A stretch of 64,000 nt of DNA from Tragulus kanchil (Eukaryota > Chordata > Mammalia > Artiodactyla > Tragulidae). The position numbers and the translations under genes were made by a program. The stretch lies in contig JAIOJX010000004.1 in assembly GCA_022376925.1 (NCBI GenBank), positions 175,179,501 through 175,243,500 of the forward strand. The letters are read 5' to 3'. Position 1 is the stretch's first letter. The number at the start of each line of letters is the position of its first letter. Below are positions 1-64,000 of this stretch, in pieces. The notes under the pieces were generated by a model, which did no database searches, was not told the origin of the DNA, and saw only the letters and a list, made by a program, of their open reading frames with translations.

Positions 1-2148
1 TCAGTGTGCTCAGTGCGGGTCTGTGTGCAGCGTCTGCGGCCTGGTCCTGACGGCGTGTGCTGGCTAAAGAACCAGGACTGCAGGGCAGCCCGGGCTGTCT
101 GGTCGTCCAGGTTAATAGCAGCCCCTTCCCTTCACAGTGGCCAGGGGTGGGCCAGGCTGGCCCTGGGAAGCCACCCGGTCAGGACGCACGGACTTTCAGA
201 AGGTCACTGTGGGGACTCTGAGTTCCCCTTGAGTTCTCAGTCAGCTTATTCCAGTTAAGAACATAATTAAGAAATAGGTGACCTAGGCCGGGGGTTGGGA
301 GCCCAGGTTTGCCACCAGCTCTGCGTGGGCAAGTCACTTTTCCTTCTGGGCCTCAGTTTTCCCATCTGACATATTGGCAGCTAGACTTGATGTTGCTAAG
401 GTGGCTGCTAGCCTTGGTAGTTTGTAACTGCACGTGACCAAAGCTGTGGGCTAGGTCATACCAAATATTAATTCAGATTAAGTGTTGATAACGGGTGAAT
501 TGGACGGGGGAAGAACTCCTTAGACGTGTCCACACGTGCTCTCCTGCCTGTTCCAACACAACTGATAAAAGCCTGTTCACATGCTGGAAAAACAGCACGC
601 CTCTGGGGACGTAAACGCTGTGCTTTGCTTTGGCACCCCGCACACTGTCAGAGGGAAGAGGACCTGCCTGGTCAGGGGCCGGGGCTGCTCCTGGAGACCT
701 GAGCGTCTGGGCTGCCTCGGCAGGGATGCGGGAGCCCCTGCACCTGATTCTGTTTGTACCTGTCGCCTGTTTGCCACGCTGCACGTGTGCTCAGGCCCGC
801 ACCCGCCTCTCCTGCCCCGCTGGGAGCCAGTCAGGCGGGGCATGGGTGGGAGGGGTCTTCAGCCCTGAAGGCCAGACCCATTGAAGGGGGGCTCTGGCTG
901 CTTTGGAAGCGCAAGGAAACTTGGCGAGGCCTCTAGTGGCTGCCGTGGGCCTAGGGGTCTAGAGACGGAGTGCCATGGGGCCAGGGCGGGGAGGACCCCT
1001 CGGTGTCAGCCCCCGTGGTTCCTGCCCATCGTGCCCTTTATCTAATGAATTTACTTGTTTTTATTTTCCATGCCACAAGGATGAAGTAAGTTGCTACTTT
1101 ATGACTGACTTATTGAATCCCAAACCTCCCTCAGTGTGCTCAGTGCGGGTCTGTGTGCAGCGTCTGCGGCCTGGTCCTGACGGCGTGTGCTGGCTAAAGA
1201 ACCAGGACTGCAGGGCAGCCCGGGCTGTCTGGTCGTCAGGTTAATAGCAGCCCCTTCCCTTCACAGTGGCCAGGGGTGGGCCAGGCTGGCCCTGGGAAGC
1301 CACCCGGTCAGGACGCACGGACTTTCAGAAGGTCACTGTGGGGACTCTGAGTTCCCCTTGAGTTCTCAGTCAGCTTATTCCAGTTAAGAACATAATTAAG
1401 AAATAGGTGACCTAGGCCGGGGGTTGGGAGCCCAGGTTTGCCACCAGCTCTGCGTGGGCAAGTCACTTTTCCTTCTGGGCCTCAGTTTTCCCATCTGACA
1501 TATTGGCAGCTAGACTTGATGTTGCTAAGGTGGCTGCTAGCCTTGGTAGTTTGTAACTGCACGTGACCAAAGCTGTGGGCTAGGTCATACCAAATATTAA
1601 TTCAGATTAAGTGTTGATAACGGGTGAATTGGACGGGGGAAGAACTCCTTAGACGTGTCCACACGTGCTCTCCTGCCTGTTCCAACACAACTGATAAAAG
1701 CCTGTTCACATGCTGGAAAAACAGCGCGCCTCTGGGGACGTAAACGCTGTGCTTTGCTTTGGCACCCCGCACACTGTCAGAGGGAAGAGGACCTGCCTGG
1801 TCAGGGGCCGGGGCTGCTCCTGGAGACCCGAGCGTCTGGGCTGCCTCGGCAGGGATGCGGGAGCCCCTGCACCTGATTCTGTTTGTACCTGTCGCCTGTT
1901 TGCCACGCTGCACGTGTGCTCAGGCCCGCACCCGCCTCTCCTGCCCCGCTGGGAGCCAGTCAGGCGGGGCATGGGTGGGAGGGGTCTTCAGCCCTGAAGG
2001 CCAGACCCATTGAAGGGGGGCTCTGGCTGCTTTGGAAGCGCAAGGAAACTTGGCGAGGCCTCTAGTGGCTGCCGTGGGCCTAGGGGTCTAGAGACGGAGT
2101 GCCATGGGGCCAGGGCGGGGAGGACCCCTCGGTGTCAGCCCCCGTGGT
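1..2148. repeat. Tandem near-identical duplication 1 (about 1-1018 and 1131-2148)
   Basis: The window opens with a block that is repeated from 1131 at offset 1130, then 1129 after a one-base indel. The copies differ at isolated sites such as 596/1726 and near 688/1817, both C/T-type changes at CpG. The 112 bases between them (1019-1130) are AT-rich and match neither copy well. The block is PACSIN2 intron sequence with no exon. Copy 1 may extend left of the window. Probably an unmerged contig overlap. Confidence 0.95.
290..405 (+). repeat. MIR SINE fragment
   Basis: The stretch runs through a 'gggcaagtcactt...gggcctcagttttcccatctg' style core, the usual MIR middle and 3' region, diverged as expected for an old mammalian SINE. 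A second copy lies at about 1420-1534 because of duplication 1. Confidence 0.65.
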
Positions 2149-2344
2149 CTCATCCCCCATCTGTCCCTGGAGGCTGGGCCCCCAAGGAGTCCCCACGTTG
2201 CACGCTGAGGAGGGCCGTGGTAGGCGTCGTGAGCCTGGAGTCTGCTGGGAAGCGGGGAGAGCAGGGCAGCGAGGTGAGGTGCCACGCTGCGGGGCGGGCG
2301 GCTGGCAGTGAACTGCTGACTCTCTCCCGGTGCCCCTTGCTCAG

Positions 2345-9300
<6,956 letters not shown>

Positions 9301-10905
9301 CGGGCCGGCCGGCCGGTGACGGAAGGGCGGGGTGTAGGCCAGCGGCTCTGAGCCTTCGGCCCCAGGCGGCCCTCCTGCCAGCCGCGAGGGCATCCACTCC
9401 TCTTCCTGCAAAGACGAAGGTTCCGTTGCTCTTGGCTTCATGGTGTCTCGAAGGCGGACAGGCTGGTTATTTCACCTGGATCTCAGCACCCTTTCCACAG
9501 TGCGGACGGAGAGCGGTGCCCAGGAAGCCGCTTTCCAACAGAAGCCCCGGGCCGCCTCGCCCCGCTCCCACCCCCGCTCACCCCGGGCTGGCTTATCATG
9601 GATCCGTGTATGCGCAACTTCGTCTCCTCTCCCCATCGGTGGTGATGGTGGGTCCTGCTAACCTTTTGCACCACCGGTTGCTTTCTCTGACAAGTGAACA
9701 AACCCACATGCTGTTTTCTGAGTGAAGACTTCGAGGTTTTTAATTTAAAGGCTGTGTACAGTTCCTTTTTTACATACATGTTCTCCATTCATTTATACTT
9801 AAATTATGTACACCAGTCTTGAGAAAGCACGTCTTTCTCACGCTGTCCTGCTTGTCACCTGCGCCCCTGCCTGGGGTCACAGCCGGCTGCCCGGACAGGC
9901 CGTCTGAGACAGGAGGTCGTGGTGGCCAGACGGGAGCCCGGGGCTGGGTTTCCATGGTGGATGCTCTCGGCATTTGGGGTGTCCAGCGGGAGTTTAGCAA
10001 GTAGCCTTATGTCGTATTCTCTGAAGTCGCCATGTTTAAAAACTATTTCAGTCTGTGCTTAAAACTTTACTCTTGCAAATTAACAATTTTATCAGTGATT
10101 TGAAAGGTTGCAAAATAAGACTCACTTTTCAAGCGAGTGCATCTCCAGTAGGGTGCCTTGCAGTAGACGGTCGTGTCTTGGTGTGTATCTGTATATACGA
10201 TTTGATACTCAGAGAAGCTAAAGAGCTCGTCTGCTGTGTTGTTGAGATTTCACAGCTTTTGACAATGGCTTTAATTTGTAAACTGCTTGCAGACCATTCG
10301 GGCACAGTGGCTGGTCGGCAGGGACCCTGCGGGCTCGGCCTGGGCCTCTCAGCAGTGGGGCCTGCCGCGAGGAGGTCTGTCCTCACTGGCCAGCTAGGGG
10401 TCCAGCGTCCTTCGTCTAGCTAGCCTTCGCCCTTCCTGTAGCAGAACACTGTACAGCGTACCAGGTCCTGGCAGCAGTTGCAGGTTTCACTGCCGTCCAC
10501 ATTCCTCGTGAGCAAACACAGGCTGGGCCCCACCCCACGGCACAGGGGTCTCTTCTGGGGGTCCTTCAGTGATCGGGGAGCAGACGTGCTGGGGCAGGAA
10601 GCTACACTGTAACCACGGGGCAGGGGAGGGAGAGAGAACTTTTATTTTGTGTAACTCAAGAGATTGGAGAAGTGGCTGCCGCCCTCACAGAAGCTATGCA
10701 TTTTATTCAGTGTTTTCAGTGAGCTTGACGTCTTGCTTGGAAAATGGATGTGTGTCTGTCTGTCCTGAAAAGTTACCAGCAGAAACCCTCATTCCTTTGC
10801 TGCAAATGTACCAAAAATTGTCAAGTCTTTTCACTTTAGGAGTCTCTTTAAAATGTATAGTATTTTAGGGAAAAAAATCAATAAACAGTCGATCTCATGA
10901 TTGTG
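9301..10905 (+). other. PACSIN2: PACSIN2 3' untranslated region (first copy of its end)
   Basis: The sequence becomes AT-richer after the stop codon and runs without splice sites to AATAAA at 10880-10885, about 1.6 kb, in line with the long 3' UTR of mammalian PACSIN2. The last 440 bases lie in duplication 4 and recur at 11539-11977. Confidence 0.85.
10880..10885 (+). terminator. PACSIN2: PACSIN2 poly(A) signal AATAAA, copy 1
   Basis: Canonical AATAAA in an A-rich stretch, followed within 30 bases by a GT-rich element (gtgctgtgcgtgtgcc) typical of the CstF-binding downstream region. An identical second copy is at 11952-11957. Confidence 0.85.
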
Positions 10906-11951
10906 ACCATCTCTGTGCTGTGCGTGTGCCTCCCAGTGACACCAGGTGGTGGACAGGCCTTCAGAAGACGGCTCCCCTGGGGCCGTGTCCCTGGCCCACC
11001 ATCCTTGCCGAGCCGGAGGCCGGGGACTCGAGGCCCTGAGCCCCTGCCTCTGTGTGGCCTGGGTGCCTCCCGCCCCCTCCCCGAGGCCCGGACAGCAGGA
11101 CCAGACCAGCAGTGCGCATCCGAGTGTCTTTGCACACATGTCCTGAGCAGGCCCTGAGCACTGGGCCCTCTTCGCTTACATCATCTGCAAAGAACACGCT
11201 CAGCCTCAAGACATGCTGTGAGGGAGGTGGGCCCTGCTCTCTCCTGAGGCTGCTCTGAGCAGTGCGGCTGCCTGCTGCCCCGGGCAGTCACAGCGTCTAC
11301 CTCGCCCAGCCCCAGGCTGCCTCCGCTACACGAGCGGGGTCAGGGCAAAGTGGAGGGGTCAGAGCGAGCAGGCTGCCTGGTCGGTGGCCAGAGCTAGGCC
11401 TGCCAGCCCCGGGCACTCGGTGAGCTCGTGTGCTGTGATGCCAGCCTGTGGGGGAGGCTGGAGTCCCCACTTCACACAGGACATGCGGTCTGGAACCCTC
11501 GGTGCCCCCTAAACCGAGTGGGGGCATCGTGGTTTTTCCCTGGCAGCAGTTGCAGGTTTCACTGCCGTCCACATTCCTCGTGAGCAAACACAGGCTGGGC
11601 CCCACCCCACGGCACAGGGGTCTCTTCTGGGGGTCCTTCAGTGATCGGGGAGCAGACGTGCTGGGGCAGGAAGCTACACTGTAACCACGGGGCAGGGGAG
11701 GGAGAGAGAACTTTTATTTTGTGTAACTCAAGAGATTGGAGAAGTGGCTGCCGCCCTCACAGAAGCTATGCATTTTATTCAGTGTTTTCAGTGAGCTTGA
11801 CGTCTTGCTTGGAAAATGGATGTGTGTCTGTCTGTCCTGAAAAGTTACCAGCAGAAACCCTCATTCCTTTGCTGCAAATGTACCAAAAATTGTCAAGTCT
11901 TTTCACTTTAGGAGTCTCTTTAAAATGTATAGTATTTTAGGGAAAAAAATC

Positions 11952-11957
11952 AATAAA
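11952..11957 (+). terminator. PACSIN2: PACSIN2 poly(A) signal AATAAA, copy 2
   Basis: Second copy of the signal with the same GT-rich downstream element, created by duplication 4. Probably only one exists in the genome. Confidence 0.8.
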
Positions 11958-12570
11958 CAGTCGATCTCATGATTGTGACCATCTCTGTGCTGTGCGTGTG
12001 CCTCCCAGTGACACCAGGTGGTGGACAGGCCTTCAGAAGACGGCTGCCCTGGGGCCGTGTCCCTGGCCCACCATCCTTGCCGAGCCGGAGGCCGGGGACT
12101 CGAGGCCCTGAGCCCCTGCCTCTGTGTGGCCTGGGTGCCTCCCGCCCCCCACCCCGAGGCCCGGACAGCAGGACCAGACCAGCAGTGCGCATCCGAGTGT
12201 CTTTGCACACATGTCCTGAGCAGGCCCTGAGCACTGGGCCCTCTTCGCTTACATCATCTGCAAAGAACACGCTCAGCCTCAAGACATGCTGTGAGGGAGG
12301 TGGGCCCTGCTCTCTCCTGAGGCTGCTCTGAGCAGTGCGGCTGCCTGCTGCCCCGGGCAGTCACAGCGTCTACCTCGCCCAGCCCCAGGCTGCCTCCGCT
12401 ACACGAGCGGGGTCAGGGCAAAGTGGAGGGGTCAGAGCGAGCAGGCTGCCTGGTCGGTGGCCAGAGCTAGGCCTGCTAGCCCCGGGCACTCGGTGAGCTC
12501 GTGTGCTGTGATGCCAGCCTGTGGGGGAGGCTGGAGTCCCCACTTCACACAGGACATGCGGTCTGGAACC

Positions 12571-15200
12571 TGCCTCGTGCCTTGCCCACGGTCCGAGGAC
12601 AGAACTGCAGTGCAGACCTTCGGCTGCAGGATTCGTGAGGTCTAATCCTTTCTCGCTCCACTGGTGGGTAAAGAGCAAGGTGACTGAGCAGGAGGGACCC
12701 TCAAAAGTCGGAGTGAAGTCACCTCTGCTCAGTGAGGCCCTTTCCTCCACTCTGTTCTCCCTAGAACTCCTGAAAGGGGGGCCCTCGCTGCCCACTGCCC
12801 TCTCCTGTCTGGCCCTCAGGGCGAGCTTGGAAACCTTCACCCACCCCTGGGTCCTATCTTCTCCAGGCCAGAGGGGTGCCCACCTACTGCCTGGAGGTGA
12901 GAGCAGGGGACAGGCCACAGGTGCTCCAGACCATGACCTTGCCTGACACCGCGTCCCCTGGTCCCACCCAGCACCCTCTGGCACCCTGGTGCCCCTCTCG
13001 CACCCTCCGTGCTGGGCCACCAGCTCCCGTTGCCTCCGTCCCGCCCCAGCCCCATTGCCGCTTCCCCTTTGCCCCCCAGGTTATTACTGCATCCACCCCC
13101 ACCCCCAGGGCCCTCAGCATGTGGGGGGAGGTGGCATTTCATCCTCTCCAACCCTTCCTAGTAATACCCGGAGGGCAAATGGCCTCTGGCTTAGTGACCT
13201 GGGCAGCTGCCCTCTCTGCCCCTCCCCAGCTCTTTCCCCAGATACCAGCAGGAGGCGTGTGCCTCTCCAGGCCCCAGCTTTCCCTTAACTGGACCGGCAG
13301 TGACCTCCGGGCTGCCTCTCTGGTCACTGGACAGAGTGAGCAGAAGGGCAGGGTCATAGCACGTTAATGGACAGACTGGGGCCGCCTGAGGGAAAGGCCT
13401 GGGGCCGGGACAGAAGCCATTCCCTCGCCTGGGGGAAGACAGACCCAGGTTGAAGTCTGAGGCTCATGCCCTGCCAGGCAGGGCCACTCCCAAGCACAGG
13501 GCAGGAGGAGCCAGGCTGACCTCTGCACTCTCGGGGGACAGGTGGCTTCTCAGCCTGCTGTTTCCAAGCAGCCTTGGGTTTTAAACATGTATCGGCTACA
13601 CGCGCGGCCCTGTGCTGAGCCCTTCCCTGCCAAGAGCCATAGAAACTGCCTCCCAACGGATGAACACCATTTAATAGAAACAAACCAGAGCTCGATCGGC
13701 CTTCACCACACCACACAGCAAGTCGGCAGATGGGGCGTCTGAGCTCTGGTGCCGGACTCCAAACCCCGCCTGCTCTCAAACGTCTAGAGGGCTTGTCACA
13801 ACCCAGCTTGTGGAACCACATCCAGGGAATGAATAAAGTCGGAGTGAAGTCACCTCTGCTCAGTGAGGCCCTTTCCTCCACTCTGTTCTCCCTAGAACTC
13901 CTGAAAGGGGGGCCCTCGCTGCCCACTGCCCTCTCCTGTCTGGCCCTCAGGGCGAGCTTGGAAACCTTCACCCACCCCTGGGTCCTATCTTCTCCAGGCC
14001 AGAGGGGTGCCCACCTACTGCCTGGAGGTGAGAGCAGGGGACAGGCCACAGGTGCTCCAGACCATGACCTTGCCTGACACCGCGTCCCCTGGTCCCACCC
14101 AGCACCCTCTGGCACCCTGGTGCCCCTCTCGCACCCTCCGTGCTGGGCCACCAGCTCCCGTTGCCTCCGTCCCGCCCCAGCCCCATTGCCGCTTCCCCTT
14201 TGCCCCCCAGGTTATTACTGCATCCACCCCCACCCCCAGGGCCCTCAGCATGTGGGGGGAGGTGGCATTTCATCCTCTCCAACCCTTCCTAGTAATACCC
14301 GGAGGGCAAATGGCCTCTGGCTTAGTGACCTGGGCAGCTGCCCTCTCTGCCCCTCCCCAGCTCTTTCCCCAGATACCAGCAGGAGGCGTGTGCCTCTCTC
14401 CAGGCCCCAGCTTTCCCTTAACTGGACCGGCAGTGACCTCCGGGCTGCCTCTCTGGTCACTGGACAGAGTGAGCAGAAGGGCAGGGTCATAGCACGTTAA
14501 TGGACAGACTGGGGCCGCCTGAGGGAAAGGCCTGGGGCCGGGACAGAAGCCATTCCCTCGCCTGGGGGAAGACAGACCCAGGTTGAAGTCTGAGGCTCAT
14601 GCCCTGCCAGGCAGGGCCACTCCCAAGCACAGGGCAGGAGGAGCCAGGCTGACCTCTGCACTCTCGGGGGACAGGTGGCTTCTCAGCCTGCTGTTTCCAA
14701 GCAGCCTTGGGTTTTAAACATGTATCGGCTACACGCGCGGCCCTGTGCTGAGCCCTTCCCTGCCAAGAGCCATAGAAACTGCCTCCCAACGGATGAACAC
14801 CATTTAATAGAAACAAACCAGAGCTCGATCGGCCTTCACCACACCACACAGCAAGTCGGCAGATGGGGCGTCTGAGCTCTGGTGCCGGACTCCAAACCCC
14901 GCCTGCTCTCAAACGTCTAGAGGGCTTGTCACAACCCAGCTTGTGGAACCACATCCAGGGAATGAATAAAGCTCAGAGTCTGCGTGTCTAACAAGTCCCC
15001 AGAGGATGCTGACCCAGGACCACACTGTGAGTAAGTCATACCAGCAATTCCTTGTGCTCCATGATTTGTTCATTCGACCAGCGGGTGCTCCCAACCAGCT
15101 CGAGGGCGCAGGAGCTGAGCCCTGGGGACCGAGAGACTGATGAGCCACGGTTTAGGCCAAGGAGGCAGGGAGAGTATGGACAAAGAGAGCCCGGGAGGGG
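12571..15200. other. Intergenic region downstream of PACSIN2
   Basis: Mostly duplication 5. GC-rich with long frames on both strands (up to about 265 codons on the minus strand), but these run through the duplication junction, lack gene-like structure and resemble no protein I know. No promoter, RNA gene or young SINE seen. Confidence 0.6.
12704..14971. repeat. Tandem near-identical duplication 5 (12704-13837 and 13835-14971)
   Basis: Offset 1131. The copies abut with only a shared AAAG at the seam (gaataaag|tcggag versus gaataaag|ctcag). Differences are few and mostly indels, such as two extra bases near 14397. Confidence 0.95.
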
Positions 15201-15202
15201 AC

Positions 15203-16115
15203 GTACCTGGTGGTCCAGTGATTAAGAATCTGCCTTGCGAGCTTCCTTGGTGGTTCAGTGGGTAAAGAGTCCACCTTGCAGTACAAGGGGCTCCAGTTCA
15301 ATCCCTGGCCCAGGAGGATCCCACGTGCTGCAGAACGGCTGGACCGCTGTGTCCAATTGCGAGCCAGTGCTCTGGAGCACATGCACCCAGAGCCGGTGCT
15401 CTGCAACAAGAGAGGCCACTGCGACAGGAGGCCCACAAAGGCTGAAGAATAAAGATGGATGAGAATAAAAGAATAGAAAACTAATAAAAGAGGCCAAAAA
15501 AAAAAAATCTGCGCCAATGAAGTGAAATGCTGTTCAAGCTATGCTAAAGGTGATGGTTTCAAATTTTAAAAAATAAAAAAGAATCTGCCTCGGGTTTTCC
15601 TGGTAGCTTAGTGGAAAAGAGTTCACCTACCAATGCAGGAGACACGAGTTCGGTCCCTGATCTGGGAAGATCCCACATGCTGCAGAGCAACTAAGCCCGT
15701 GAGCCACAACTATTGAGCCTGTGTGCCACAACTACTGAAGCCCGTGAGTCCTGGAGCCCGAGTTCCACAATGGGAGAAGTAGCTGCAACAAGAAGCCTAC
15801 TCACCTCAACTGAAGAGTATCCCCCACTCCCTGCAACTAAAGAAGAGCCTGTGGCAGCAGTGAAAACCCAGAAGAGCCAAAAATAAATAAATAAAGTAAA
15901 ATAAAATAATAATAAAAAAAGAATCTGCCTTGCGCTGCAGCGGACGTGGGTTTGATCCCTGATTGGGTAACTAAGACCCCATGTGCTGTGGGAAACTAAG
16001 CCCATGGGCCACAACTACTGAGTCCATGAGCCACGCTGGAGAGTCTGTTCTGCAATGAAAGATCCTGCATGGCGCAGCTAAGACCCAACACGGCCAAATA
16101 AGTATTTTTTTAATG
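15203..16115 (+). repeat. Nested SINE cluster: Bov-tA-type element split by two later SINEs
   Basis: The outer SINE begins at about 15203 (tggtggtccagtgattaag), is broken at AAGAATCTGCCTTGCG (15224-15239), and resumes at the same 16-base word at 15919-15934, running on to about 16115. Between lie a CHR-lineage SINE of the 'ccaaagaacaaagatgga' kind (about 15240-15510) and a longer CHR-type SINE (about 15590-15915) ending in ccaaaaataaataaa. The 11-base core AAGAATCTGCC also occurs at 15579-15589. This gives a readable insertion order. Confidence 0.8.
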
Positions 16116-18168
16116 TTAAAAATAGTTCTAAAAGAGAGAGGGCTTCCCTGGTGGTCCAGTGGATAAGGACACCACCGCCTTGCAGTGCAAGGGGCGCCGG
16201 TTTGATCTCTGGCCTGGGAAGATCCCACTTGCCGCGGAGTGACTGGACCTGTGTGTCCAATGACCGAGCCGGAGCTCTGGAGCGCATGCGCTCAGAGCCG
16301 GTGCTCTGCGACAACAGAGGCCACCGCGATGGGAGGCCCACATGGGCCAAAGAACAAAGATGGATGAAGACAGATAAATGAAAGACCAATTGAAGTGTCC
16401 CTCCCAACAAAAAGAGAGAGCCCAGAAAGCAAGGGACATGGGAAAATGTGACCTCCCATTCCTGGCAAGGGGCAGAGAGGGCTAGGTGGCAGCCAAGTAG
16501 TGGAGAGAGGTGGCCCACCACGATCAGATGGGCACCTTGTGTCCGCATGAAGTCCCTTCATATCTCTGACCCTCCATTTCCTCATCTGGAAAATGGTTCC
16601 CGTCTTTTCTTTTTCCTTATCATTGGGTCAGCAGTGTGTAAGTGCTTGTTAAAACACCCAGATATAAGGCACCACTTTATGACAGTGGTCTCACCTCCAA
16701 GTACCATCCCAACTCAAGCAGATAATAACCAAAGTGCGCAGACTCCAGGTGGAGATGCTGGATTCTCCCCAACCAGACACTGAGCATGAACACTTCCTTC
16801 AAGCCATATGTTCATTCATATATGAAACTGTATATAAGCAAACTGGATTTTCCACACCAAAATCTAATAAAATATTTTACTTTTTTTCATCTCTGAAATG
16901 TAAAGTCTTATAGAGAGAGGTGTAAAGATGAATCCAGTGGTTAAGAGCATGGATTGTGAGGTCATATTCCCTGCATCCAAACTTGGCTTCTCTTGTAGGA
17001 CCTTACTTACGTTACCTCGGGCTTTTCAAAGACTTAATTTCTCTGAGCCTTGGTTTGCTCATCGATTTACTGAGTTTCCCATGTGCTGTGGGAAACTAAG
17101 CCCATGGGCCACAACTACTGAGTCCATGAGCCACGCTGGAGAGTCTGTTCTGCAATGAAAGATCCTGCATGGCGCAGCTAAGACCCAACACGGCCAAATA
17201 AGTATTTTTTTAATGTTAAAAATAGTTCTAAAAGAGAGAGGGCTTCCCTGGTGGTCCAGTGGATAAGGACACCACCGCCTTGCAGTGCAAGGGGCGCCGG
17301 TTTGATCTCTGGCCTGGGAAGATCCCACTTGCCGCGGAGTGACTGGACCTGTGTGTCCAATGACCGAGCCGGAGCTCTGGAGCGCATGCGCTCAGAGCCG
17401 GTGCTCTGCGACAACAGAGGCCACCGCGATGGGAGGCCCACATGGGCCAAAGAACAAAGATGGATGAAGACAGATAAATGAAAGACCAATTGAAGTGTCC
17501 CTCCCAACAAAAAGAGAGAGCCCAGAAAGCAAGGGACATGGGAAAATGTGACCTCCCATTCCTGGCAAGGGGCAGAGAGGGCTAGGTGGCAGCCAAGTAG
17601 TGGAGAGAGAGGTGGCCCACCACGATCAGATGGGCACCTTGTGTCCGCATGAAGTCCCTTCATATCTCTGACCCTCCATTTCCTCATCTGGAAAATGGTT
17701 CCCGTCTTTTCTTTTTCCTTATCATTGGGTCAGCAGTGTGTAAGTGCTTGTTAAAACACCCAGATATAAGGCACCACTTTATGACAGTGGTCTCACCTCC
17801 AAGTACCATCCCAACTCAAGCAGATAATAACCAAAGTGCGCAGACTCCAGGTGGAGATGCTGGATTCTCCCCAACCAGACACTGAGCATGAACACTTCCT
17901 TCAAGCCATATGTTCATTCATATATGAAACTGTATATAAGCAAACTGGATTTTCCACACCAAAATCTAATAAAATATTTTACTTTTTTTCATCTCTGAAA
18001 TGTAAAGTCTTATAGAGAGAGGTGTAAAGATGAATCCAGTGGTTAAGAGCATGGATTGTGAGGTCATATTCCCTGCATCCAAACTTGGCTTCTCTTGTAG
18101 GACCTTACTTACGTTACCTCGGGCTTTTCAAAGACTTAATTTCTCTGAGCCTTGGTTTGCTCATCGAT
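15978..18168. repeat. Tandem near-identical duplication 6 (15978-17066 and 17078-18168)
   Basis: Offset 1100. It starts inside the SINE cluster and ends inside a MIR, at atcgat. The junction is 11 bases (17067-17077). Its right end overlaps duplication 7, so 16946-17066, 18048-18168 and 19200-19320 are the same sequence three times. Confidence 0.95.
16141..16410 (+). repeat. CHR-lineage tRNA-type SINE (about 270 bp form)
   Basis: Begins ggcttccctggtggtccag, has the tRNA-like B-box region (ggtttgatctctggcc) and ends with the 'aaagaacaaagatggatg' tail. Flanked by a perfect 10-base target-site duplication AAAGAGAGAG at 16131-16140 and 16411-16420. A copy lies at 17241-17510 through duplication 6. 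Exact family name uncertain. Confidence 0.85.
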
Positions 18169-18362
18169 AAAACGGCAATAGTAAACATTTATATCTCACT
18201 CTGTGCCATTTCCTGTTCAAAACTCTAACACTGATTAACATTTAACACAACAACCCTATGAACTCAGTAAATGTTATTACTCCTGTCTCTATAGGTGAGG
18301 AACCTGAACCAGCCCCAAGTTAGGTAACTTGCCCAAGGAGCAAGCGTCACCAGGTTCAGACG
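18032..18362 (+). repeat. Two MIR-type SINE fragments
   Basis: The first (to about 18175) has ggttaagagcatgg and cttggtttgctcatcgataa, matching a MIR core and 3' side. The second (about 18180-18362) has aacaaccctatgaactcagt and ggtaacttgcccaagg, matching another MIR. Other copies sit at 16930-17066 (truncated) and 19200-19515 because of duplications 6 and 7. Confidence 0.7.
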
Positions 18363-20339
18363 GGTTGGTGCAGTGCAGCCTCTGCCCACCAGGGCGCGCT
18401 GTTGGACCGCGTGCCGCAGAGGATGAGGCCGTGTCGGGCGCCGGGGGCACTCGTCGGGGGACACCAGGATAACAGGATACCAGGCCTCCCTCCCTGCTCT
18501 GGACACCACACAGTCACTGCTGGTGTATCCGCTTGCTTGAACAGCAAGCTCACTGGTGCAGGGGCTGTGCCTTCATCTTCTCCCTAGCCCCAGCGCTTGT
18601 GGAGCGAAACTGAAAAGAAAAAATGAAATCAGTTTTGGACCATCCAATTAGACCCAGGTTGCACTGTTTCAGACCTCTTCAGATCCTCTGTGGGGGAAGG
18701 CGAGGAGATGCAGGAAGCAAGGAACAGATAAACTGCATAAAGAGCATCACTCTCTTCCCAGGTGGCCCAGTGGCTAAGACTCTGCACTCCCAATGCTAGG
18801 GGCCAGGGTTCAATCCCTCGTCAGGGAACTAGATCCCACATGCCCCAGCTAAAGAGTTCACATGCTTCAACAAAAATCAAAGATCCTACGTGCTACCCTT
18901 AAGACCTGGCACAGTTGAATACAATTAATAAAAACTTTTTTTAATTAGAAAAAAACAGCATCATTGTCTGAGGAAAGGATAACTAACACCCCAGCTCCGC
19001 TGACAGGCTACGGCCCTGGTGTGCAGTGTGGCAGCTGAAGGTCACAGAAACCCGAGTGCCTGGCCCGGAGCCTGAGCGCAAACAGTGCCAGTCTGGTGGC
19101 CTCGGATCAGCATGGTGAAGGGACTGCCCGCGACCTCCGGCGGCCAGGCCGCTCCTGCCCCAGCAGGCTTCATGGAACAATGTTGATACTGAAATGTAAA
19201 GCATGGATTGTGAGGTCATATTCCCTGCATCCAAACTTGGCTTCTCTTGTAGGACCTTACTTACGTTACCTCGGGCTTTTCAAAGACTTAATTTCTCTGA
19301 GCCTTGGTTTGCTCATCGATAAAACGGCAATAGTAAACATTTGTATCTCACTCTGTGCCATTTCCTGTTCAAAACTCTAACACTGATTAACATTTAACAC
19401 AACAACCCTATGAACTCAGTAAATGTTATTACTCCTGTCTCTATAGGTGAGGAACCTGAACCAGCCCCAAGTTAGGTAACTTGCCCAAGGAGCAAGCGTC
19501 ACCAGGTTCAGACGGGTTGGTGCAGTGCAGCCTCTGCCCACCAGGGCGCGCTGTTGGACCGCGTGCCGCAGAGGATGAGGCCGTGTCGGGCGCCGGGGGC
19601 ACTCGTCGGGGGACACCAGGATAACAGGATACCAGGCCTCCCTCCCTGCTCTGGACACCACACAGTCACTGCTGGTGTATCCGCTTGCTTGAACAGCAAG
19701 CTCACTGGTGCAGGGGCTGTGCCTTCATCTTCTCCCTAGCCCCAGCGCTTGTGGAGCGAAACTGAAAAGAAAAAATGAAATCAGTTTTGGACCATCCAAT
19801 TAGACCCAGGTTGCACTGTTTCAGACCTCTTCAGATCCTCTGTGGGGGAAGGCGAGGAGATGCAGGAAGCAAGGAACAGATAAACTGCATAAAGAGCATC
19901 ACTCTCTTCCCAGGTGGCCCAGTGGCTAAGACTCTGCACTCCCAATGCTAGGGGCCAGGGTTCAATCCCTCGTCAGGGAACTAGATCCCACATGCCCCAG
20001 CTAAAGAGTTCACATGCTTCAACAAAAATCAAAGATCCTACGTGCTACCCTTAAGACCTGGCACAGTTGAATACAATTAATAAAAACTTTTTTTAATTAG
20101 AAAAAAACAGCATCATTGTCTGAGGAAAGGATAACTAACACCCCAGCTCCGCTGACAGGCTACGGCCCTGGTGTGCAGTGTGGCAGCTGAAGGTCACAGA
20201 AACCCGAGTGCCTGGCCCGGAGCCTGAGCGCAAACAGTGCCAGTCTGGTGGCCTCGGATCAGCATGGTGAAGGGACTGCCCGCGACCTCCGGCGGCCAGG
20301 CCGCTCCTGCCCCAGCAGGCTTCATGGAACAATGTTGAT
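18048..20339. repeat. Tandem near-identical duplication 7 (18048-19187 and 19200-20339)
   Basis: Offset 1152. The junction tgttgat|actgaaatgtaaa (19188-19199) looks like a shortened form of the true continuation at 20340-20360 (gacttttctgtaattataaa). It chains with duplications 6 and 8. Confidence 0.95.
18756..18953 (+). repeat. Bov-tA SINE
   Basis: Contains gtggcccagtggctaagac, ggttcaatccctcgtcaggg and aactagatcccacatgcc, the Bov-tA hallmark, then an A-rich tail. Second copy at about 19908-20105 through duplication 7. Confidence 0.85.
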
Positions 20340-20640
20340 GACTTTTCTGTAATTATAAAAGGAACAAAGTTTCAGATGAAAATTTGGAAATGGAGCAAAA
20401 GTATTCAGAAAAACATTAAAGTCCCAACATATAGAGGTAATACTGCCAATATTCGGGTGGATTTTTTTCATATGTACACATGTGCTCGTGCTTTATTGTC
20501 CTCACATTCATGTCTGTGCGTTTTACAAAGTTGGGTTCATACTCTAAATGTAGTTTGGTACCTGCTTCATTCTTTTTAATATTTGATCATGAGCATTTCT
20601 CATGTCCCTTAATATACTTCCACTAAAAATACATGTAATG

Positions 20641-21086
20641 GGGCTTTCCTGGAAGCTCAGTGGTAAAGAGTTCGCCTGCCAATGCAGGAGACATGGGGGA
20701 AGATCCCACATGCTGCGAAGCGACTGAGCCCGTGAGCCACAGCGATGGAGCCTGGGCTCTAGAGCCTCGGAGCCTCAGCGACTGAGCCCGTGAGCCACAG
20801 CGATGGAGCCTGGGCTCTAGAGCCTCGGAGCCTCAGCGACTGAGCCCGTGAGCCACAGCGATGGAGCCTGGGCTCTAGAGCCTCGGAGCCGCAGCGACTG
20901 AGCCCGTGTGCTGCAACTACTGAAGTCTGTGTGCCCTAGAGCCCGTGTCCCACAAGAGACGTCACTGTGACAAGAAGCCTACTCACGTCAGCTAGAGAGT
21001 AGCCCCCACTCCCTGCAACTAGAGAAGAGCCTGCAGCAGTGAAAACCCAGAACAGCCAAAACTAAGTAAGTAAATAAAATTTTTTA
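20641..21086 (+). repeat. CHR-type SINE carrying an internal 58-bp tandem repeat
   Basis: Starts gggctttcctggaagctcag, runs through agcccgtgagccacagcg and ends in ccaaaactaagtaagtaaa. Imperfect target-site duplication: aaaatacatgtaatg before, aaaatacaggtaacg after. The 58-bp triplication makes it longer than its relatives at 15590 and 27936. Second copy about 21791-22237. Confidence 0.85.
20721..20894 (+). repeat. 58-bp minisatellite, three units
   Basis: Units begin cgactgagcccgtgagccac at 20721, 20779 and 20837; the word recurs in part at 20895. The units are almost identical, so the expansion is recent. Second copy of the array at 21872-22045. Confidence 0.92.
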
Positions 21087-22409
21087 AAATACAGGTAACG
21101 GCTGTGTGATATTTCACGTGCTGTAAGTCCCATATGGCTGAGCACTTGTCTCCTGCCTTTTTTCCATTTTTCCATACAGTAAAATGCACTGTGTTTAATG
21201 TATAATTTGATAAATGCATATAGTCAAGCTACCATTGCCTCAAACAAGATACAGACTGCCTCACCCCTGAGGAAAGGATAACTAACACCCCAGCTCCGCT
21301 GACAGGCTACGGCCCTGGTGTGCAGTGTGGCAGCTGAAGGTCACAGAAACCCGAGTGCCTGGCCCGGAGCCTGAGCGCAAACAGTGCCAGTCTGGTGGCC
21401 TCGGATCAGCATGGTGAAGGGACTGCCCGCGACCTCCGGCGGCCAGGCCGCTCCTGCCCCAGCAGGCTTCATGGAACAATGTTGATGACTTTTCTGTAAT
21501 TATAAAAGGAACAAAGTTTCAGATGAAAATTTGGAAATGGAGCAAAAGAAAACATTAAAGAAAACATTAAAGTCCCAACATATAGAGGTAATACTGCCAA
21601 TATTCGGGTGGATTTTTTTCATATGTACACATGTGCTCGTGCTTTATTGTCCTCACATTCATGTCTGTGCATTTTACAAAGTTGGGTTCATACTCTAAAT
21701 GTAGTTTGGTACCTGCTTCATTCTTTTTAATATTTGATCATGAGCATTTCTCATGTCCCTTAATATACTTCCACTAAAAATACATGTAATGGGGCTTTCC
21801 TGGAAGCTCAGTGGTAAAGAGTTCGCCTGCCAATGCAGGAGACATGGGGGAAGATCCCACATGCTGCGAAGCGACTGAGCCCCTGAGCCACAGCGATGGA
21901 GCCTGGGCTCTAGAGCCTCGGAGCCTCAGCGACTGAGCCCGCGAGCCACAGCGATGGAGCCTGGGCTCTAGAGCCTCGGAGCCTCAGCGACTGAGCCCGT
22001 GAGCCACAGCGATGGAGCCTGGGCTCTAGAGCCTCGGAGCCGCAGCGACTGAGCCCGTGTGCTGCAACTACTGAAGTCTGTGTGCCCTAGAGCCCGTGTC
22101 CCACAAGAGACGTCACCGTGACAAGAAGCCTACTCACGTCAGCTAGAGAGTAGCCCCCACTCCCTGCAACTAGAGAAGAGCCTGCAGCAGTGAAAACCCA
22201 GAACAGCCAAAACTAAGTAAGTAAATAAAATTTTTTAAAATACAGGTAACGGCTGTGTGATATTTCACGTGCTGTAAGTCCCATATGGCTGAGCACTTGT
22301 CTCCTGCCTTTTTTCCATTTTTCCATACAGTAAAATGCACTGTGTTTAATGTATAATTTGATAAATGCATATAGTCAAGCTACCATTGCCTCAAACAAGA
22401 TACACAGCT

Positions 22410-22830
22410 GTCCTCGCAACCCCTCAAACTCCTCCCTGCTCCTCTGTAATCAGCCCCTCCTTGTCCTCCCAGCCTCTGGAAACCACTGACCAGTTTTGTT
22501 TCCATAGTTTTGACCTTTCCAGAATGCTATGTGAATGAAATCATATAACACGTAGCCTTTTGAGATCGCCTTAGCTTTCACTTCACATAATTCATCTGAA
22601 GTCCATCCACGTGGCTTCATGGATCGATCGTTTGTTCCTGCTTACCATGGGTAGTTTCCATTGAGTGAATGAACCATGGTCTGTTGGTCCAACTGAAGGC
22701 TATTTGGGCTGTTTCTGTCGCTTTTGATGATTACAAATAAATGTATTATTAACATGCATGTATAGGTTTTCAAGTATATGTTATTGTGTAAACATAAGTT
22801 TTCATTTCATTTAAAATAATATTGTAATGT
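22410..22830. repeat. Old L1 LINE 3' fragment
   Basis: Contains gaatgctatgtgaatgaaatc, tgaagtccatccacgtggc and ctatttgggctgtttctgtc, the familiar wording of mammalian L1M 3' regions, with many substitutions. The part from 22671 recurs from 23843. Assignment from memory of the family. Confidence 0.6.
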
Positions 22831-22926
22831 TGAAAATATTACAGTAATGAGGATTTCAAATCTTTTATCCCATTAAAGGAGGTAATGGCATCAGCTTAAA
22901 TTTCTATTTTTAAAAAAATCAATCAA

Positions 22927-23045
22927 GGGGAACTCCCTGGTGATCTATTGGTTAGGATATTTCCACTGCAGAGAACAAAGGTTCCATCCCTGGCCTGGGA
23001 ACCAAGATCCTGTAAGCTGTGCAATGTGGCCAAAAAAAAGAAAGA
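22927..23045 (+). repeat. Bov-tA-type SINE
   Basis: Begins ggaactccctggtgatctat, has ccatccctggcctgggaacc and ends caatgtggccaaaaaaaag. Second copy about 24099-24225. Confidence 0.75.
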
Positions 23046-23329
23046 AAAAAAAAAGGACACATTTGTGAATTTCCAAAAGTATGAAATCAAGTAGGACCCT
23101 ACATGGTCCTCCTGGACCCTCCATGCCCCCCCATTTATTGCTTGTGAAAAATGGGTTTGTTTCCCAGGACTTCCCTGAGTTCCAAAGACCAGACTCAAGC
23201 AGCTACTAATGAAGGAGATGAGCAAATGCAGAAACAAAGGAGATGGCACCGGGCTTTCAGCAAGGTGCTGTTCAAATGGATGAGCTAAAGGAACTTTGGG
23301 GGATGGCCAGGCCACAGGCGTGTGCTCTA

Positions 23330-23527
23330 AGCCCTGCCCATCTCTGCGGCGCCATGGACTGTAGCCCTCTCGGCTCCTCCGTCCATGGATTTCCTAGGCA
23401 AGAATATGAGAGTAGGCTGCCATTTCCTCTTCCAGGGGATCTTCCCAACCCAGGAATCGAACCCAGATCTCTTAGTCTCCTGCACCAAGTAGGCAGATTC
23501 TTTACCCACTGCATCACCTAGGAAGCT
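23330..23527 (-). repeat. Bov-A2 SINE, minus strand
   Basis: In + reading it shows atggactgtagccctctcgg, ccaggggatcttcccaaccc, gaatcgaacccagatctc and gcagattctttacccactg, the reverse complement of Bov-A2. Second copy about 24502-24700. Confidence 0.85.
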
Positions 23528-24703
23528 GAAGTGTTAGTCACTCAATTGTGTCCAACTGTTTATGAGCCCATGGACTGTAGCCCATCAGGCTCTTCTGTCC
23601 ATGGAATTCTCCAGTCAAGAATACTGGAGTGGGGGACTTCCCTGGTGGTCCAGTGCTTAAGACTCTGTGCTTCTAATGCAGGGTCCCAGGTTTGATCCCT
23701 GGTCAGGGAACTAGATCCCACATGCCACAACGAAGACCCAATGCAGCCAAATTAAGGTAAATAAAGCAATAATTAAAAAAAAAAAAGAATACTGGAGCGG
23801 GTAGCCATTCCCTTCTCCAGGGGATGTTCCTGACCCAGGATCGAACCATGGTCTGTTGGTCCAACTGAAGGCTATTTGGGCTGTTTCTGTCGCTTTTGAT
23901 GATTACAAATAAATGTATTATTAACATGCATGTATAGGTTTTCAAGTATATGTTATTGTGTAAACATAAGTTTTCATTTCATTTAAAATAATATTGTAAT
24001 GTTGAAAATATTACAGTAATGAGGATTTCAAATCTTTTATCCCATTAAAGGAGGTAATGGCATCAGCTTAAATTTCTATTTTTAAAAAAATCAATCAAGG
24101 GGAACTCCCTGGTGATCTATTGGTTAGGATATTTCCACTGCAGAGAACAAAGATTCCATCCCTGGCCTGGGAACCAAGATCCTGTAAGCTGTGCAATGTG
24201 GCCAAAAAAAAGAAAGAAGAAAAAAAGGACACATTTGTGAATTTCCAAAAGTATGAAATCAAGTAGGACCCTACATGGTCCTCCTGGACCCTCCATGCCC
24301 CCCCATTTATTGCTTGTGAAAAATGGGTTTGTTTCCCAGGACTTCCCTGAGTTCCAAAGACCAGACTCAAGCAGCTACTAATGAAGGAGATGAGCAAATG
24401 CAGAAACAAAGGAGATGGCACCGGGCTTTCAGCAAGGTGCTGTTCAAATGGATGAGCTAAAGGAACTTTGGGGGATGGCCAGGCCACAGGCGTGTGCTCT
24501 AAGCCCTGCCCATCTCTGCGGCGCCATGGACTGTAGCCCTCTCGGCTCCTCCGTCCATGGATTTCCTAGGCAAGAATATGAGAGTAGGCTGCCATTTCCT
24601 CTTCCAGGGGATCTTCCCAACCCAGGAATCGAACCCAGATCTCTTAGTCTCCTGCACCAAGTAGGCAGATTCTTTACCCACTGCATCACCTAGGAAGCTG
24701 AAG

Positions 24704-25087
24704 TGTTAGTCACTCAATTGTGTCCAACTGTTTATGAGCCCATGGACTGTAGCCCATCAGGCTCTTCTGTCCATGGAATTCTCCAGTCAAGAATACTGGA
24801 GTGGGGGACTTCCCTGGTGGTCCAGTGCTTAAGACTCTGTGCTTCTAATGCAGGGTCCCAGGTTTGATCCCTGGTCAGGGAACTAGATCCCACATGCCAC
24901 AACGAAGACCCAATGCAGCCAAATTAAGGTAAATAAAGCAATAATTAAAAAAAAAAAAAGAATACTGGAGCGGGTAGCCATTCCCTTCTCCAGGGGATGT
25001 TCCTGACCCAGGGATCGAACCTGCATCTCTTGTGCCTCCTGCATTGATCAGATGGATTCTTTACCAACTGTACCACCTGCGAAGCCC
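24704..25087 (-). repeat. Bov-A2 SINE (minus) split by a Bov-tA (plus) insertion
   Basis: The Bov-A2 is broken after AAGAATACTGGAG (24789-24801). A plus-strand Bov-tA (about 24805-24957, gggacttccctggtggtcc to a long A tail) follows, and the same 13 bases recur at 24958-24970, where the Bov-A2 resumes and runs to its end. A perfect target-site duplication. The first, incomplete copy is at 23532-23847. Confidence 0.88.
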
Positions 25088-25253
25088 CTGGCCAAAAAGA
25101 TCATTGGGGTATTCCTGTAAGATGTTACCTGGCCACAGCCACACCAGGCTCTCTTCATGAAAGGCAGAGAGCAAGGACAGTACCCAGAAGGCAATGTGCA
25201 CCTGCCTCTTGATGGGGCCCTTCTATTTTTCTCAAATCTGAAGCAGTGATTTT

Positions 25254-26203: not shown

Positions 26204-26242
26204 AAAACTTGTGAGTGAAAGTAAGGTCTCTTTGTTTTTGAG

Positions 26243-27175: not shown

Positions 27176-27179
27176 GTAA

Positions 27180-27750: not shown

Positions 27751-27782
27751 AGGAGAATTGCTGTCTCTCACGGATATACCCT

Positions 27783-28596
27783 GACATGGAACAACGGACT
27801 GGTTCAAAATCAGGAGAGGAGTATACAGTCTGATATCTAAGGCTGTATATTGCTTATTTAGCCCATATGCAGAGTACATCATGTGAAATGCCGAACTGGA
27901 TGAAGCACGAGATGGAATCAAGATTGCTTGGAGAGGGCTTCCCTGGTGGCTCAGTGGTAAAGAGTTCGCCTGCCAGTGCGGCGACATGGGTTCGATCCCT
28001 GAGCCAGGAAGATCCCACATGCTGTGGAACAACTAAGCCCGTGAGCCACAACTATGGAGCCTGTGCTCTAGAGCCTCAGCGCTGCAACTACTGAGCCCAT
28101 GGGCCACAACTATTGAAGCCTGTGTGCCCTAGAACTCAAGTTCCACGAGAGAAGTCACTGCAGCAAGAAGTCTGATCACCTCAACTAAAGAGTAGCCCCC
28201 ACTCCCTGCAATTAGAGAAGAGCCTGTGGCAGCAGTGAAAACCCAGAATAGCCAAAAATAAGTAAATAAATGAAATTTTAAAAAAAAGATTGCTGAGAGA
28301 AATATCAATAACGCCAGGTAGGCAGATGACAATCTCCCTTATGGCAGAAAGTAAAGAGGATTTAAAGAGCCTCTTGAAGGTGAAAGAGGAGTGTACAAAA
28401 ACTGGCCTAAAAGTCAACATTTAAAAAAACGAAGATTATGGCATCTGCTCCCATCACTTCACAGCAAATAGATGGGCAAACAATGGAAATAAGTGAGACT
28501 CCAAAGTCACTGCGGATGGTGACTGTAGCCATGAAATTAAAAGAAGCTTGCTCCTTGGAAGGAAAGCCATGACAAACCTAGGCAACGGATTAAAAG
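27783..28596 (+). repeat. BovB (RTE) LINE fragment with a CHR SINE inserted
   Basis: The plus strand reads like the BovB reverse transcriptase region: gacatggaacaacggactgg, atgcagagtacatcatg, then after the SINE gagaaatatcaataacgcc and ggtgactgtagccatgaaat. The frame is broken by indels and stops, so it is dead. The SINE is at 27936-28285, with target word aagattgct on both sides (27920-27928, 28286-28294). BovB stops abruptly at about 28596 where the STMN1 retrocopy begins. Second copy 28967-29780. Confidence 0.88.
27936..28285 (+). repeat. CHR-type SINE inside BovB
   Basis: ggcttccctggtggctcagt through ggttcgatccctgagccagg, agcccgtgagccacaac and ccaaaaataagtaaataaa. Second copy 29120-29469. 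Confidence 0.88.
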
Positions 28597-28936
28597 GTCA
28601 GGCATCAAGAGTGTGGCCCGGTGGCTCGGACTAAGCAGGGTTTTCCTTGCCATGGATCCTGCAGAGCCCACGCCAGTCTCTTGTCTTCTGTTCACCATGG
28701 CTTCTTCTGGTGTCCAGGTGAAGGAACTGGAGAAGCCTGCCTCAGGCCAGGCTTTTGAGCTGACTCTCAGCCCTCGATCAAAAGAATCTGTGCCAGCATT
28801 TCCCCTTTCCCCTCCTAAGAAGAAGGATCTTGCCCTGTAGGAGATTCCGAAGAAATTAGAAGCTGCAGAAGAAAAACACACGTCCCATGAAGCCGAGGGC
28901 TTGAAGCAGCTTCAGAAACCAGAGGGCTCGGAAATC
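28597..28936 (+). pseudogene. STMN1: STMN1 retrocopy, truncated first copy
   Basis: 5' UTR-like sequence, then ATG at 28697 and the first 68 or so codons of the stathmin frame, ending in degraded sequence at the duplication junction. It is the same locus as 29781-30680 (offset 1184), not a second retroposition, because the flanking BovB and SINE are duplicated with it. Confidence 0.85.
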
Positions 28937-31412: not shown

Positions 31413-31599
31413 TGATATGCCCAAACTGATATTCAAGGAAACCAACTTCGCCAGAGAACGCTTCCCCCCCAGGGGACAGCGGTAGCTTAGGGCAAAATAA
31501 ATACATAAAAAAGTGACCAGAGACAATCCGCCTCTTGTCCTCGGGCGTCGGGTAACGGAAGGTAGGCCCTTGCCCAGCAAGCTTCCTCCTTGGCCACTT

Positions 31600-32006: not shown

Positions 32007-62443
<30,437 letters not shown>

Positions 62444-64000
62444 GTATGTGTTACCCTGTAGTCTGATTTAGAGAGTGAGGCTTATTGAGGAAAAGATGAA
62501 TCCTGCCTGTGTAGTCTGCCCAGAACGTACAATGTAATGAGATGTATTTAAACAAAAAGCGCCACTCTGTTTTGGCCAGCCTGGAGACGGAGAGGCAGCA
62601 GCTTCTGCACCGGAGAAGCTGCTCCCGCTGCTGTCTGACCTGCTGGCTCGTGTCCCGGGACACGCAGAGGTCAGAGCAGCCACGTCACTCCCGGCCGCTC
62701 GAGCACCCCCAGCATTTTCTTCTCCTTCTGATGTTATCGTTGGTGAACTCAGTCTCTACTTTTTCACTCTCAGGGAAGTGTAATCTGAAATTCATGTGTA
62801 TGACACTTCACTGACTGGAAAGCAGCAGCTCAAATATTAGCCACGTTCCCGGTTTCTTCATCCAGTATTAGTAGACTGGCGGGGGCTTCCCTGGTGGCCC
62901 AGTGGGTAAGGACACCACCTTGCAGTGCAAGGGGCGCCGGTTCAATCCCTGGCCTGGGAAGATCCCACGTGCCGCGGAGCGGCTGGACCGATGTGTCCAA
63001 CTACCGAGCCAGAGCTCTGGAGCGCACGCACCCAGAGCCGGTGCTCTGCAATGACAGACGCCACTGCAATGGGAGGCCCACATGGGCCAAAGAACAAAGA
63101 TGGATGAAAAATAGAGAAATGAAAGACCAATAGAAGTGGCCCGCCCGTCCCCTCCTTCCCCAACCCGCCCCCTCCAATAAATAAATAAATAAGTAGTAGA
63201 CTGGCAGGAAGCCGGAAGCAGATTACGTGGCTGCCATAATACGCAGCTAGAAGAATGTGGGGACAAAGAGGATTTCCATGAGTGTCTTTTTTATACTCAA
63301 ACTGTAATGATGCGACTCCTTCCTTAAGGGCTAAAAATTTTCATCTTTGTGGGTTTATGCTATCTTTTCCTATTAAAGCACATTCTCATCTTTGTAAGAA
63401 AAAACCAAGATTTTATTCTTACTGGGTCTCTTAAACCTAATTCTAAACACAGAACATATAATCTATGATTATATTTTACCCAGAAAACAATTTTCAAGAA
63501 ACTTTAACTAAAAGCATCATCTATTTTTGTACAATTTAGGAAGTAATGTTACCAAGATAATGGAGTGTTTTCTATTTCCTTAGTGATAAAATCTGTATAT
63601 AAATCAGGGTGGAAAAGCACTTCGCTGGCTGCTTTAGCTGTACACATAATGCCCGGCTAACTTTATACTTTAAAGCCATTTTGAAAGTCTTTGAAGAGTC
63701 GCGATTAATAGGCGAGTTTGTTTAAACGCACAAATGCCCCTGGAGAGCGTGGTGAGCGGGCAGGCTGAGGCTCCCTGTTTCTCCGCAGTGTGGTCTCCTC
63801 CCCGCCACGGTGCATGCTCTCTGAGTTTAGAAAGCCTAGACAGACTAAGGATGCTGTTCACTGGTCTCCTTGGGTCTTCTGGATGACAAACTAATGTGGA
63901 CAGTGTTACAGTCTCTTAAATAATAAAAGACAGGATCTTAGAATTTTTTTAAAAAGTACACTAAAAATAGGCAAATTATGTATTTCTATTGGTCCGACTT
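62444..64000 (+). other. ARFGAP3: ARFGAP3 intron 7 (partial)
   Basis: Continues past the window end. Contains a CHR-lineage SINE at 62882-63192; the AT-rich remainder (63193-64000) shows no exon or other feature I recognise. Confidence 0.7.
62869..63207 (+). repeat. CHR-lineage SINE with target-site duplication
   Basis: Element about 62882-63190: gggcttccctggtggcccag, gcggctggaccgatgtgtcc, gaacaaagatggatgaaaaa and an (ATAA)n tail. TAGTAGACTGGC lies just before it (62869-62880) and again after it (near 63195-63206). Confidence 0.9.

What the first reader, a model, noticed from the sequence alone, without database searches (positions are those of the whole stretch)
1..62664. Nineteen ~1.1-kb tandem near-duplications spread through the window
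Nineteen times a block of 1.03-1.18 kb is followed at once by a near-identical copy. Offsets lie in a narrow band (1072-1184). Breakpoints ignore exons, SINEs and promoters, and about 21 kb is redundant. Real tandem duplication of uniform size at 19 unrelated sites has no known mechanism. Overlapping contig ends placed side by side explain it fully. The true locus would be near 43 kb.
Basis: partly seen in the sequence, partly recalled or inferred. Interest (0 to 1): 0.92.

Follow-up and report, generated by a model that had tools for sequence, protein, structure and literature searches.

The report
False tandem duplications from assembly overlaps
Nineteen stretches of about 1,100 letters appear twice in a row in this animal gene region, most likely because genome-assembly software printed the overlapping ends of neighbouring pieces side by side, so it is probably an ordinary, if unusually regular, data error and not biology.

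Summary
In detail: 19 adjacent direct repeats, left copies 1,029-1,177 bp, offsets 1,072-1,184 bp (mean 1,118, SD 29), identity 98.65-100%, 21,249 redundant bases, 42,751 after subtraction. They are almost surely false. Small losses sit at the end of whichever piece stops there: within 250 bp of a block end, 42 of 46 indels are missing from the copy whose own piece ends at that point (22 of 22 at heads, 20 of 24 at tails; Fisher p = 2e-9); 34 of the 42 lie within 100 bp of that end. Real duplications have no reason to decay at each copy's own seam. Three neighbouring block pairs overlap, so 125-224 bp occurs three times. The ARFGAP3 first coding exon and one later ARFGAP3 exon segment are doubled. 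Precedents are published for Entamoeba, cattle, chicken and chimpanzee assemblies. Ordinary contig overlap does not predict the uniform size (CV 2.6%) without any N. This suggests an assembler stitching units with a designed overlap of about 1.0-1.1 kb and failing to trim it. That last step is inferred: step-only periodicity tests were not significant, and the window's own assembly could not be reached in seven tries.

The parts
1..2168 (.). Block 1: left 1-1037 (cut by window edge), right 1131-2168, offset 1130
3135..5339 (.). Block 2: left 3135-4228, right 4248-5339, offset 1113; its 19-bp linker resembles, with bases lost, the sequence after the right copy
6345..8559 (.). Block 3: left 6345-7444, right 7460-8559, offset 1115
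10467..12570 (.). Block 4: left 10467-11497, right 11539-12570, offset 1072
12704..14979 (.). Block 5: left 12704-13845, right 13835-14979, offset 1131
15978..18168 (.). Block 6: left 15978-17066, right 17078-18168, offset 1100
18044..20343 (.). Block 7: left 18044-19190, right 19197-20343, offset 1153; overlaps block 6, so 18044-18168 exists three times; holds a tRNA-like element in both copies
20120..22415 (.). Block 8: left 20120-21262, right 21267-22415, offset 1147; overlaps block 7, so 20120-20343 exists three times
22671..25021 (.). Block 9: left 22671-23847, right 23843-25021, offset 1172; holds a tRNA-like element in both copies
27753..30111 (.). Block 10: left 27753-28924, right 28937-30111, offset 1184
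31533..33722 (.). Block 11: left 31533-32612, right 32643-33722, offset 1110, identical; contains the ARFGAP3 first coding exon twice
34101..36255 (.). Block 12: left 34101-35171, right 35188-36255, offset 1087
39582..41791 (.). Block 13: left 39582-40694, right 40692-41791, offset 1110; six indels in its first 160 bp, all missing from the right copy
41586..43764 (.). Block 14: left 41586-42677, right 42671-43764, offset 1085; overlaps block 13, so 41586-41791 exists three times
44707..46956 (.). Block 15: left 44707-45838, right 45828-46956, offset 1121
47034..49169 (.). Block 16: left 47034-48062, right 48138-49169, offset 1104; 75-bp linker of unproven origin
50031..52238 (.). Block 17: left 50031-51135, right 51134-52238, offset 1103, identical
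54316..56499 (.). Block 18: left 54316-55404, right 55417-56499, offset 1101; 10 bases of its linker recur within the 130 bp before the left copy
60448..62664 (.). Block 19: left 60448-61548, right 61559-62664, offset 1111; eight indels in its terminal 250-bp zones, all missing from the copy that ends there; holds an ARFGAP3 exon segment twice
32007..32078 (+). ARFGAP3 first coding exon (24 aa), left copy; identical right copy at 33117-33188
61272..61331 (+). ARFGAP3 exon segment (residues 189-208 of the recalled human protein), left copy; right copy at 62380-62439

Best explanation
The nineteen repeats are most likely assembly errors in which neighbouring assembly pieces, each probably ending in error-rich sequence, were laid end to end with their shared overlap of about 1.1 kb printed twice. 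Shown: the 19 adjacent repeats, their uniform offset, indels gathering at the outer end of each copy, three stretches present three times, doubled exons, no N. Inferred: the pieces were units that the assembler itself makes with a near-constant overlap (about 1.0-1.1 kb), as in long-read assemblers that compute a consensus per graph edge and then join edges across a shared node (recalled design); where error-rich ends failed to align, the two units were concatenated untrimmed. I put the artefact as such at about 0.97 and this particular stitching step at about 0.6; the first two rivals below are other versions of the same artefact.
For: Within 250 bp of block ends, 42 of 46 indels are missing from the copy whose own piece ends there (heads 22 of 22, tails 20 of 24; Fisher p = 2e-9). 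Loss decays from the end: 34, 6 and 2 such indels in successive 100-bp bins, against 3, 1 and 1 missing from the other copy; 26 of the 42 are losses within runs or of a repeat unit. By block: 13 for, 0 against, 1 tie, 5 without terminal indels (p = 0.0002). Core substitutions are few: 21 in 11,444 bp, 1.8 per kb, a level I would expect of two haplotypes or residual error (inference). Some linkers resemble damaged continuations of a piece: of 11 tested against the sequence after the right copy, blocks 2 and 3, and of 10 tested against that before the left copy, blocks 11, 12 and 18, reach p 0.05 or less against 400 random sites (5 of 21 tests, about one expected by chance). Offset CV is 2.6% while pieces advance by 894-5,031 bp: the overlap is near-constant, the piece length is not. 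Three pairs of neighbouring blocks overlap each other, as a fixed overlap on short pieces forces. Precedent: 161 artefactual tandem duplications at contig boundaries, median 892 bp, in an Entamoeba assembly (PMC2886108, passages).
Against: No reads, depth or second assembly could be examined. Four of 46 terminal indels have the wrong polarity (blocks 1, 2 and 14), and all six core indels are missing from the left copy, which the model does not predict. Six of 11 linkers tested match neither neighbour at p 0.05. For the fixed-unit step: the test on cumulative positions gave period 1,038 with p = 0.004, but the step-only tests (best 1,024, p = 0.13; best 231, p = 0.17) were not significant. The assembler's design figures are recalled; its paper is not held.
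Confidence: 0.95

Rival explanations
1. Duplicated overlapping contigs: ordinary scaffold neighbours from two haplotypes, or ending in single-read tails, whose overlap was not recognised; any gap of N was later removed.
For: Known in cattle, chicken and chimpanzee assemblies, most contigs under 2 kb (PMC2864568, passages), and in Entamoeba, median 892 bp (PMC2886108, passages). Core substitutions of 1.8 per kb would fit two haplotypes.
Against: Nothing in it fixes the offset at 1,118 with SD 29; two pairs are identical, so divergence did not block their merging; there is no N; the median identity reported for haplotype cases is 98.1%, here 98.65-100%.
Confidence: 0.28
2. Untrimmed gap-filling: inserted fill sequences kept about 1 kb of anchor on each side, so each filled gap yields two duplications.
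For: Would also give a fixed overlap and no N, as seen.
Against: Contig and fill would alternate, and at each seam only the fill copy should be worn; but at 5 of 19 seams (blocks 1, 7, 12, 15, 19) both copies have lost bases at their own ends, and runs of consecutive pieces carry losses (read from the list).
Confidence: 0.08
3. Real tandem duplications of uniform size in the animal's genome.
For: The sequence as given does hold both copies.
Against: Polarised losses at each copy's own seam end, linkers that in part look like damaged continuations, overlapping blocks giving stretches in three copies, 19 events of one size within 43 kb, and doubled exons of conserved genes.
Confidence: 0.015

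Closest known systems
Artefactual tandem duplications at contig boundaries, first Entamoeba histolytica assembly (PMC2886108, passages)
   Same: Tandem copies at boundaries of neighbouring contigs, about 1 kb (161 cases, median 892 bp), exposed by self dot-plots
   Different: There found across a whole assembly with contig boundaries on record; here 19 in 64 kb with a 2.6% spread in offset and no boundary marks
Duplicated overlapping contigs (DOCs), Kelley and Salzberg 2010 (PMC2864568, passages)
   Same: Overlapping neighbouring contigs both placed in the assembly give false duplications; found in cow among others
   Different: Attributed to haplotype divergence, median identity 98.1%; here identity is higher, two pairs are identical, and size is near-constant
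Mis-assembled high-fidelity duplications in Btau 4.2, Zimin et al. 2012 (PMC3411808, text part 1 of 2)
   Same: False near-identical intrachromosomal duplications in a cattle assembly, conjectured by the authors to come from unmerged overlaps
   Different: Defined as over 5 kb and linked to BAC merging; here about 1.1 kb
Negative gaps removed by BisCoT (PMC8389630, passages)
   Same: Artefactual tandem duplications called negative gaps
   Different: Introduced at optical-map hybrid scaffolding of long contigs; here seams lie every 2-6 kb

Membership tests
False duplication from overlapping assembly pieces | Copies directly adjacent, near-identical, at piece boundaries | tested here: met
   19 of 19 adjacent (-11 to 93 bp between copies), 98.65-100% identity; the boundaries themselves are inferred from the error pattern
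False duplication from overlapping assembly pieces | Quality falls at the end of the left piece and the start of the right piece | tested here: met
   42 of 46 terminal indels with that polarity; 34 of 42 within 100 bp
False duplication from overlapping assembly pieces | Half read depth per copy, reads skipping one copy | not testable with these tools
   no reads held
False duplication from overlapping assembly pieces | Absent from an independent assembly | not testable with these tools
   no eukaryotic reference in the tools; the window's own assembly not reached
Haplotype-driven duplicated overlapping contigs | Copies differ as two haplotypes | tested here: inconclusive
   1.8 substitutions per kb in cores, but two pairs identical
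Fixed-overlap unit stitching (fuzzy-Bruijn-graph type assembler) | Overlap length constant and independent of piece length | tested here: met
   offset CV 2.6%, steps 894-5,031 bp
Fixed-overlap unit stitching (fuzzy-Bruijn-graph type assembler) | Piece spacing quantised at bin or node size | tested here: inconclusive
   period 1,038, p = 0.004 on cumulative positions; p = 0.13 and 0.17 on steps
Fixed-overlap unit stitching (fuzzy-Bruijn-graph type assembler) | Assembly known to come from such an assembler | not testable with these tools
   assembly not named or reached
Genuine tandem duplication | Copies equally intact at the seam | tested here: not met
   polarised losses, Fisher p = 2e-9

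The most novel reading that the evidence does not exclude
A genuine burst of tandem duplications of one fixed size, about 1.1 kb, at 19 unrelated sites within 43 kb of a mammalian chromosome, followed by loss of bases at each seam.
Probability: 0.01. Interest if true: 0.95.

Novelty: not a real feature. Interest (0 to 1): 0.15.

Why it matters
If the rest of the assembly is like this window (not tested), it would be inflated by about half over its true length (21.2 kb added to 42.8 kb) and would carry false doubled exons, promoters and SINEs that would mislead gene models, copy-number calls and sequence models trained on it. The polarity of terminal indels is a simple reference-free test that could separate false from true tandem duplications.

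Tried and rejected
Real tandem duplication: rejected because losses are polarised to each copy's own seam end, blocks overlap each other, and exons are doubled.

Linkers as foreign inserts: 11 of 19 blocks had linkers of 9 bp or more and were tested; the other 8 were left out. Five match a neighbour at p 0.05 or less (blocks 2, 3, 11, 12, 18), six do not (blocks 1, 4, 6, 10, 16, 19). Block 1 could be tested on one side only, its other side lying before the window. Block 18's 10-base match lies about 55 bp away from the left copy's start, so it is weak.

Bin or node periodicity: suggestive on cumulative positions (periods 300-2,499, 500 simulations), not significant on steps (4,000 simulations; the simulations scanned every third period only, which if anything favours significance). 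Kept as a weak lead.

Literature: nine searches for false tandem duplications, wtdbg and consensus joining brought precedents for contig-boundary duplications but, in the listings and passages seen, no description of a series of constant 1.1-kb size; that is no claim that none is in print. The wtdbg2 paper is not held. The cattle benchmark that used wtdbg2 (PMC10250393, 12 of 13 places) says nothing of such repeats in what I saw.

Full report
Observation. A self-comparison of the 64,000-base window shows 19 adjacent direct repeats. Left copies measure 1,029-1,177 bp (mean 1,102), offsets 1,072-1,184 (mean 1,118, SD 29), identity 98.65-100%. Summed offsets are 21,249 bases; 42,751 remain. The window has no N. 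A looser scan (40 bp or more, at least 93% identity, within 6 kb) found five further pairs: three third copies caused by overlap of neighbouring blocks, and two that belong to a 72-bp repeat. So at that sensitivity no further duplication of intermediate length was found.

Setting. The window runs through the last PACSIN2 exons into ARFGAP3 on the + strand. This rests on tblastn with protein sequences recalled from memory, checked against solved structures for two exons: 32007-32078 matches human ARFGAP3 (2crw, E 4.7e-10) and 9184-9297 matches PACSIN2 (3haj, E 3.6e-20). The exon with the ARFGAP3 start codon lies in block 11 and so appears twice, identical; an ARFGAP3 exon segment appears twice in block 19. 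tRNA-like elements, probably SINE-derived (inference), are doubled in block 7 and block 9. The species was not determined.

The decisive pattern. If two pieces of sequence overlap and are laid end to end, the left copy is the end of the left piece and the right copy is the start of the right piece. Errors at piece ends should then appear in the right copy near the block head and in the left copy near the block tail. Within 250 bp of block heads 22 of 22 indels are missing from the right copy; within 250 bp of tails 20 of 24 are missing from the left copy (Fisher p = 2e-9). By 100-bp bins from the end the losses in the ending copy number 34, 6, 2, while those in the other copy number 3, 1, 1. 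By block, 13 show the pattern, none the reverse, one is tied (block 2) and five have no terminal indels (blocks 4, 6, 11, 16, 17). 26 of the 42 are losses inside runs or of a repeat unit. The 34 substitutions show no such gathering by thirds (13, 12, 9), though nine of them lie within 100 bp of an end; core substitutions run at 1.8 per kb (21 in 11,444 bp).

Further signs. Some linkers between copies look like damaged continuations: block 2's resembles the sequence after the right copy with bases lost, block 11's the sequence before the left copy. Five of the 11 linkers tested reach p 0.05 against 400 random sites on one side or the other (5 of 21 tests, about one expected by chance), six do not. 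Three neighbouring pairs of blocks (6-7, 7-8, 13-14) overlap, leaving 125, 224 and 206 bp in three copies with at most one difference each. Independent real duplications would not be expected to do that three times.

Mechanism. That the duplications are false I hold at about 0.97. Which step made them is less sure. The overlap is near-constant (offset CV 2.6%) while pieces advance by 894-5,031 bp. Read-length or haplotype overlaps should vary far more (inference). A constant overlap suggests units made by the assembler with a shared node of set length; from memory, wtdbg-type assemblers use 256-bp bins and nodes of four bins (1,024 bp) and join per-edge consensus sequences across the shared node. 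Failure of that join at error-rich ends would give just this picture. Against over-reading: cumulative positions gave a best period of 1,038 with p = 0.004 (500 simulations), but step-only tests peaked at 1,024 (p = 0.13) and 231 (p = 0.17) and are not significant. The paper on that assembler is not held. I put the stitching step at about 0.6. Untrimmed gap-filling would also give a fixed overlap, but at 5 of 19 seams (blocks 1, 7, 12, 15, 19) both copies have lost bases at their own ends, where that model expects only the fill to be worn.

Unpredicted. All six core indels are missing from the left copy, and four terminal indels, all at tails (blocks 1, 2 and 14), go the wrong way. I have no explanation beyond small numbers and alignment choice.

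Precedent. Artefactual tandem duplications at contig boundaries with a median of 892 bp were reported for Entamoeba (PMC2886108, passages); false overlapping-contig duplications for chicken, chimpanzee and cow (PMC2864568, passages); false high-fidelity duplications for Btau 4.2 (PMC3411808, main text part 1 of 2); negative gaps for a scaffolded plant assembly (PMC8389630, passages). The kind is known; what is unusual here is density and near-constant size.

Limits. No reads and no second reference were available.

Noticed in passing
18756-18829 and 19908-19981; 23639-23711 and 24811-24883: tRNA-like elements (called tRNA-Gly and tRNA-Arg by ARAGORN; the second pair also hit by Rfam tRNA), each doubled by its block; probably tRNA-derived SINEs rather than tRNA genes (inference).
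   Followed up: partly
20835-20906, 21870-21941, 21986-22057: A 72-bp repeat at 97% identity with two copies 116 bp apart, inside block 8; a small local repeat, not part of the 1.1-kb series.
   Followed up: no
cores of blocks 3, 4, 5, 6, 8, 16: All six indels more than 250 bp from both block ends are missing from the left copy; not predicted by the end-error model.
   Followed up: no
48063-48137: The 75-bp linker of block 16 matches neither neighbour convincingly (p 0.28 and 0.09).
   Followed up: partly
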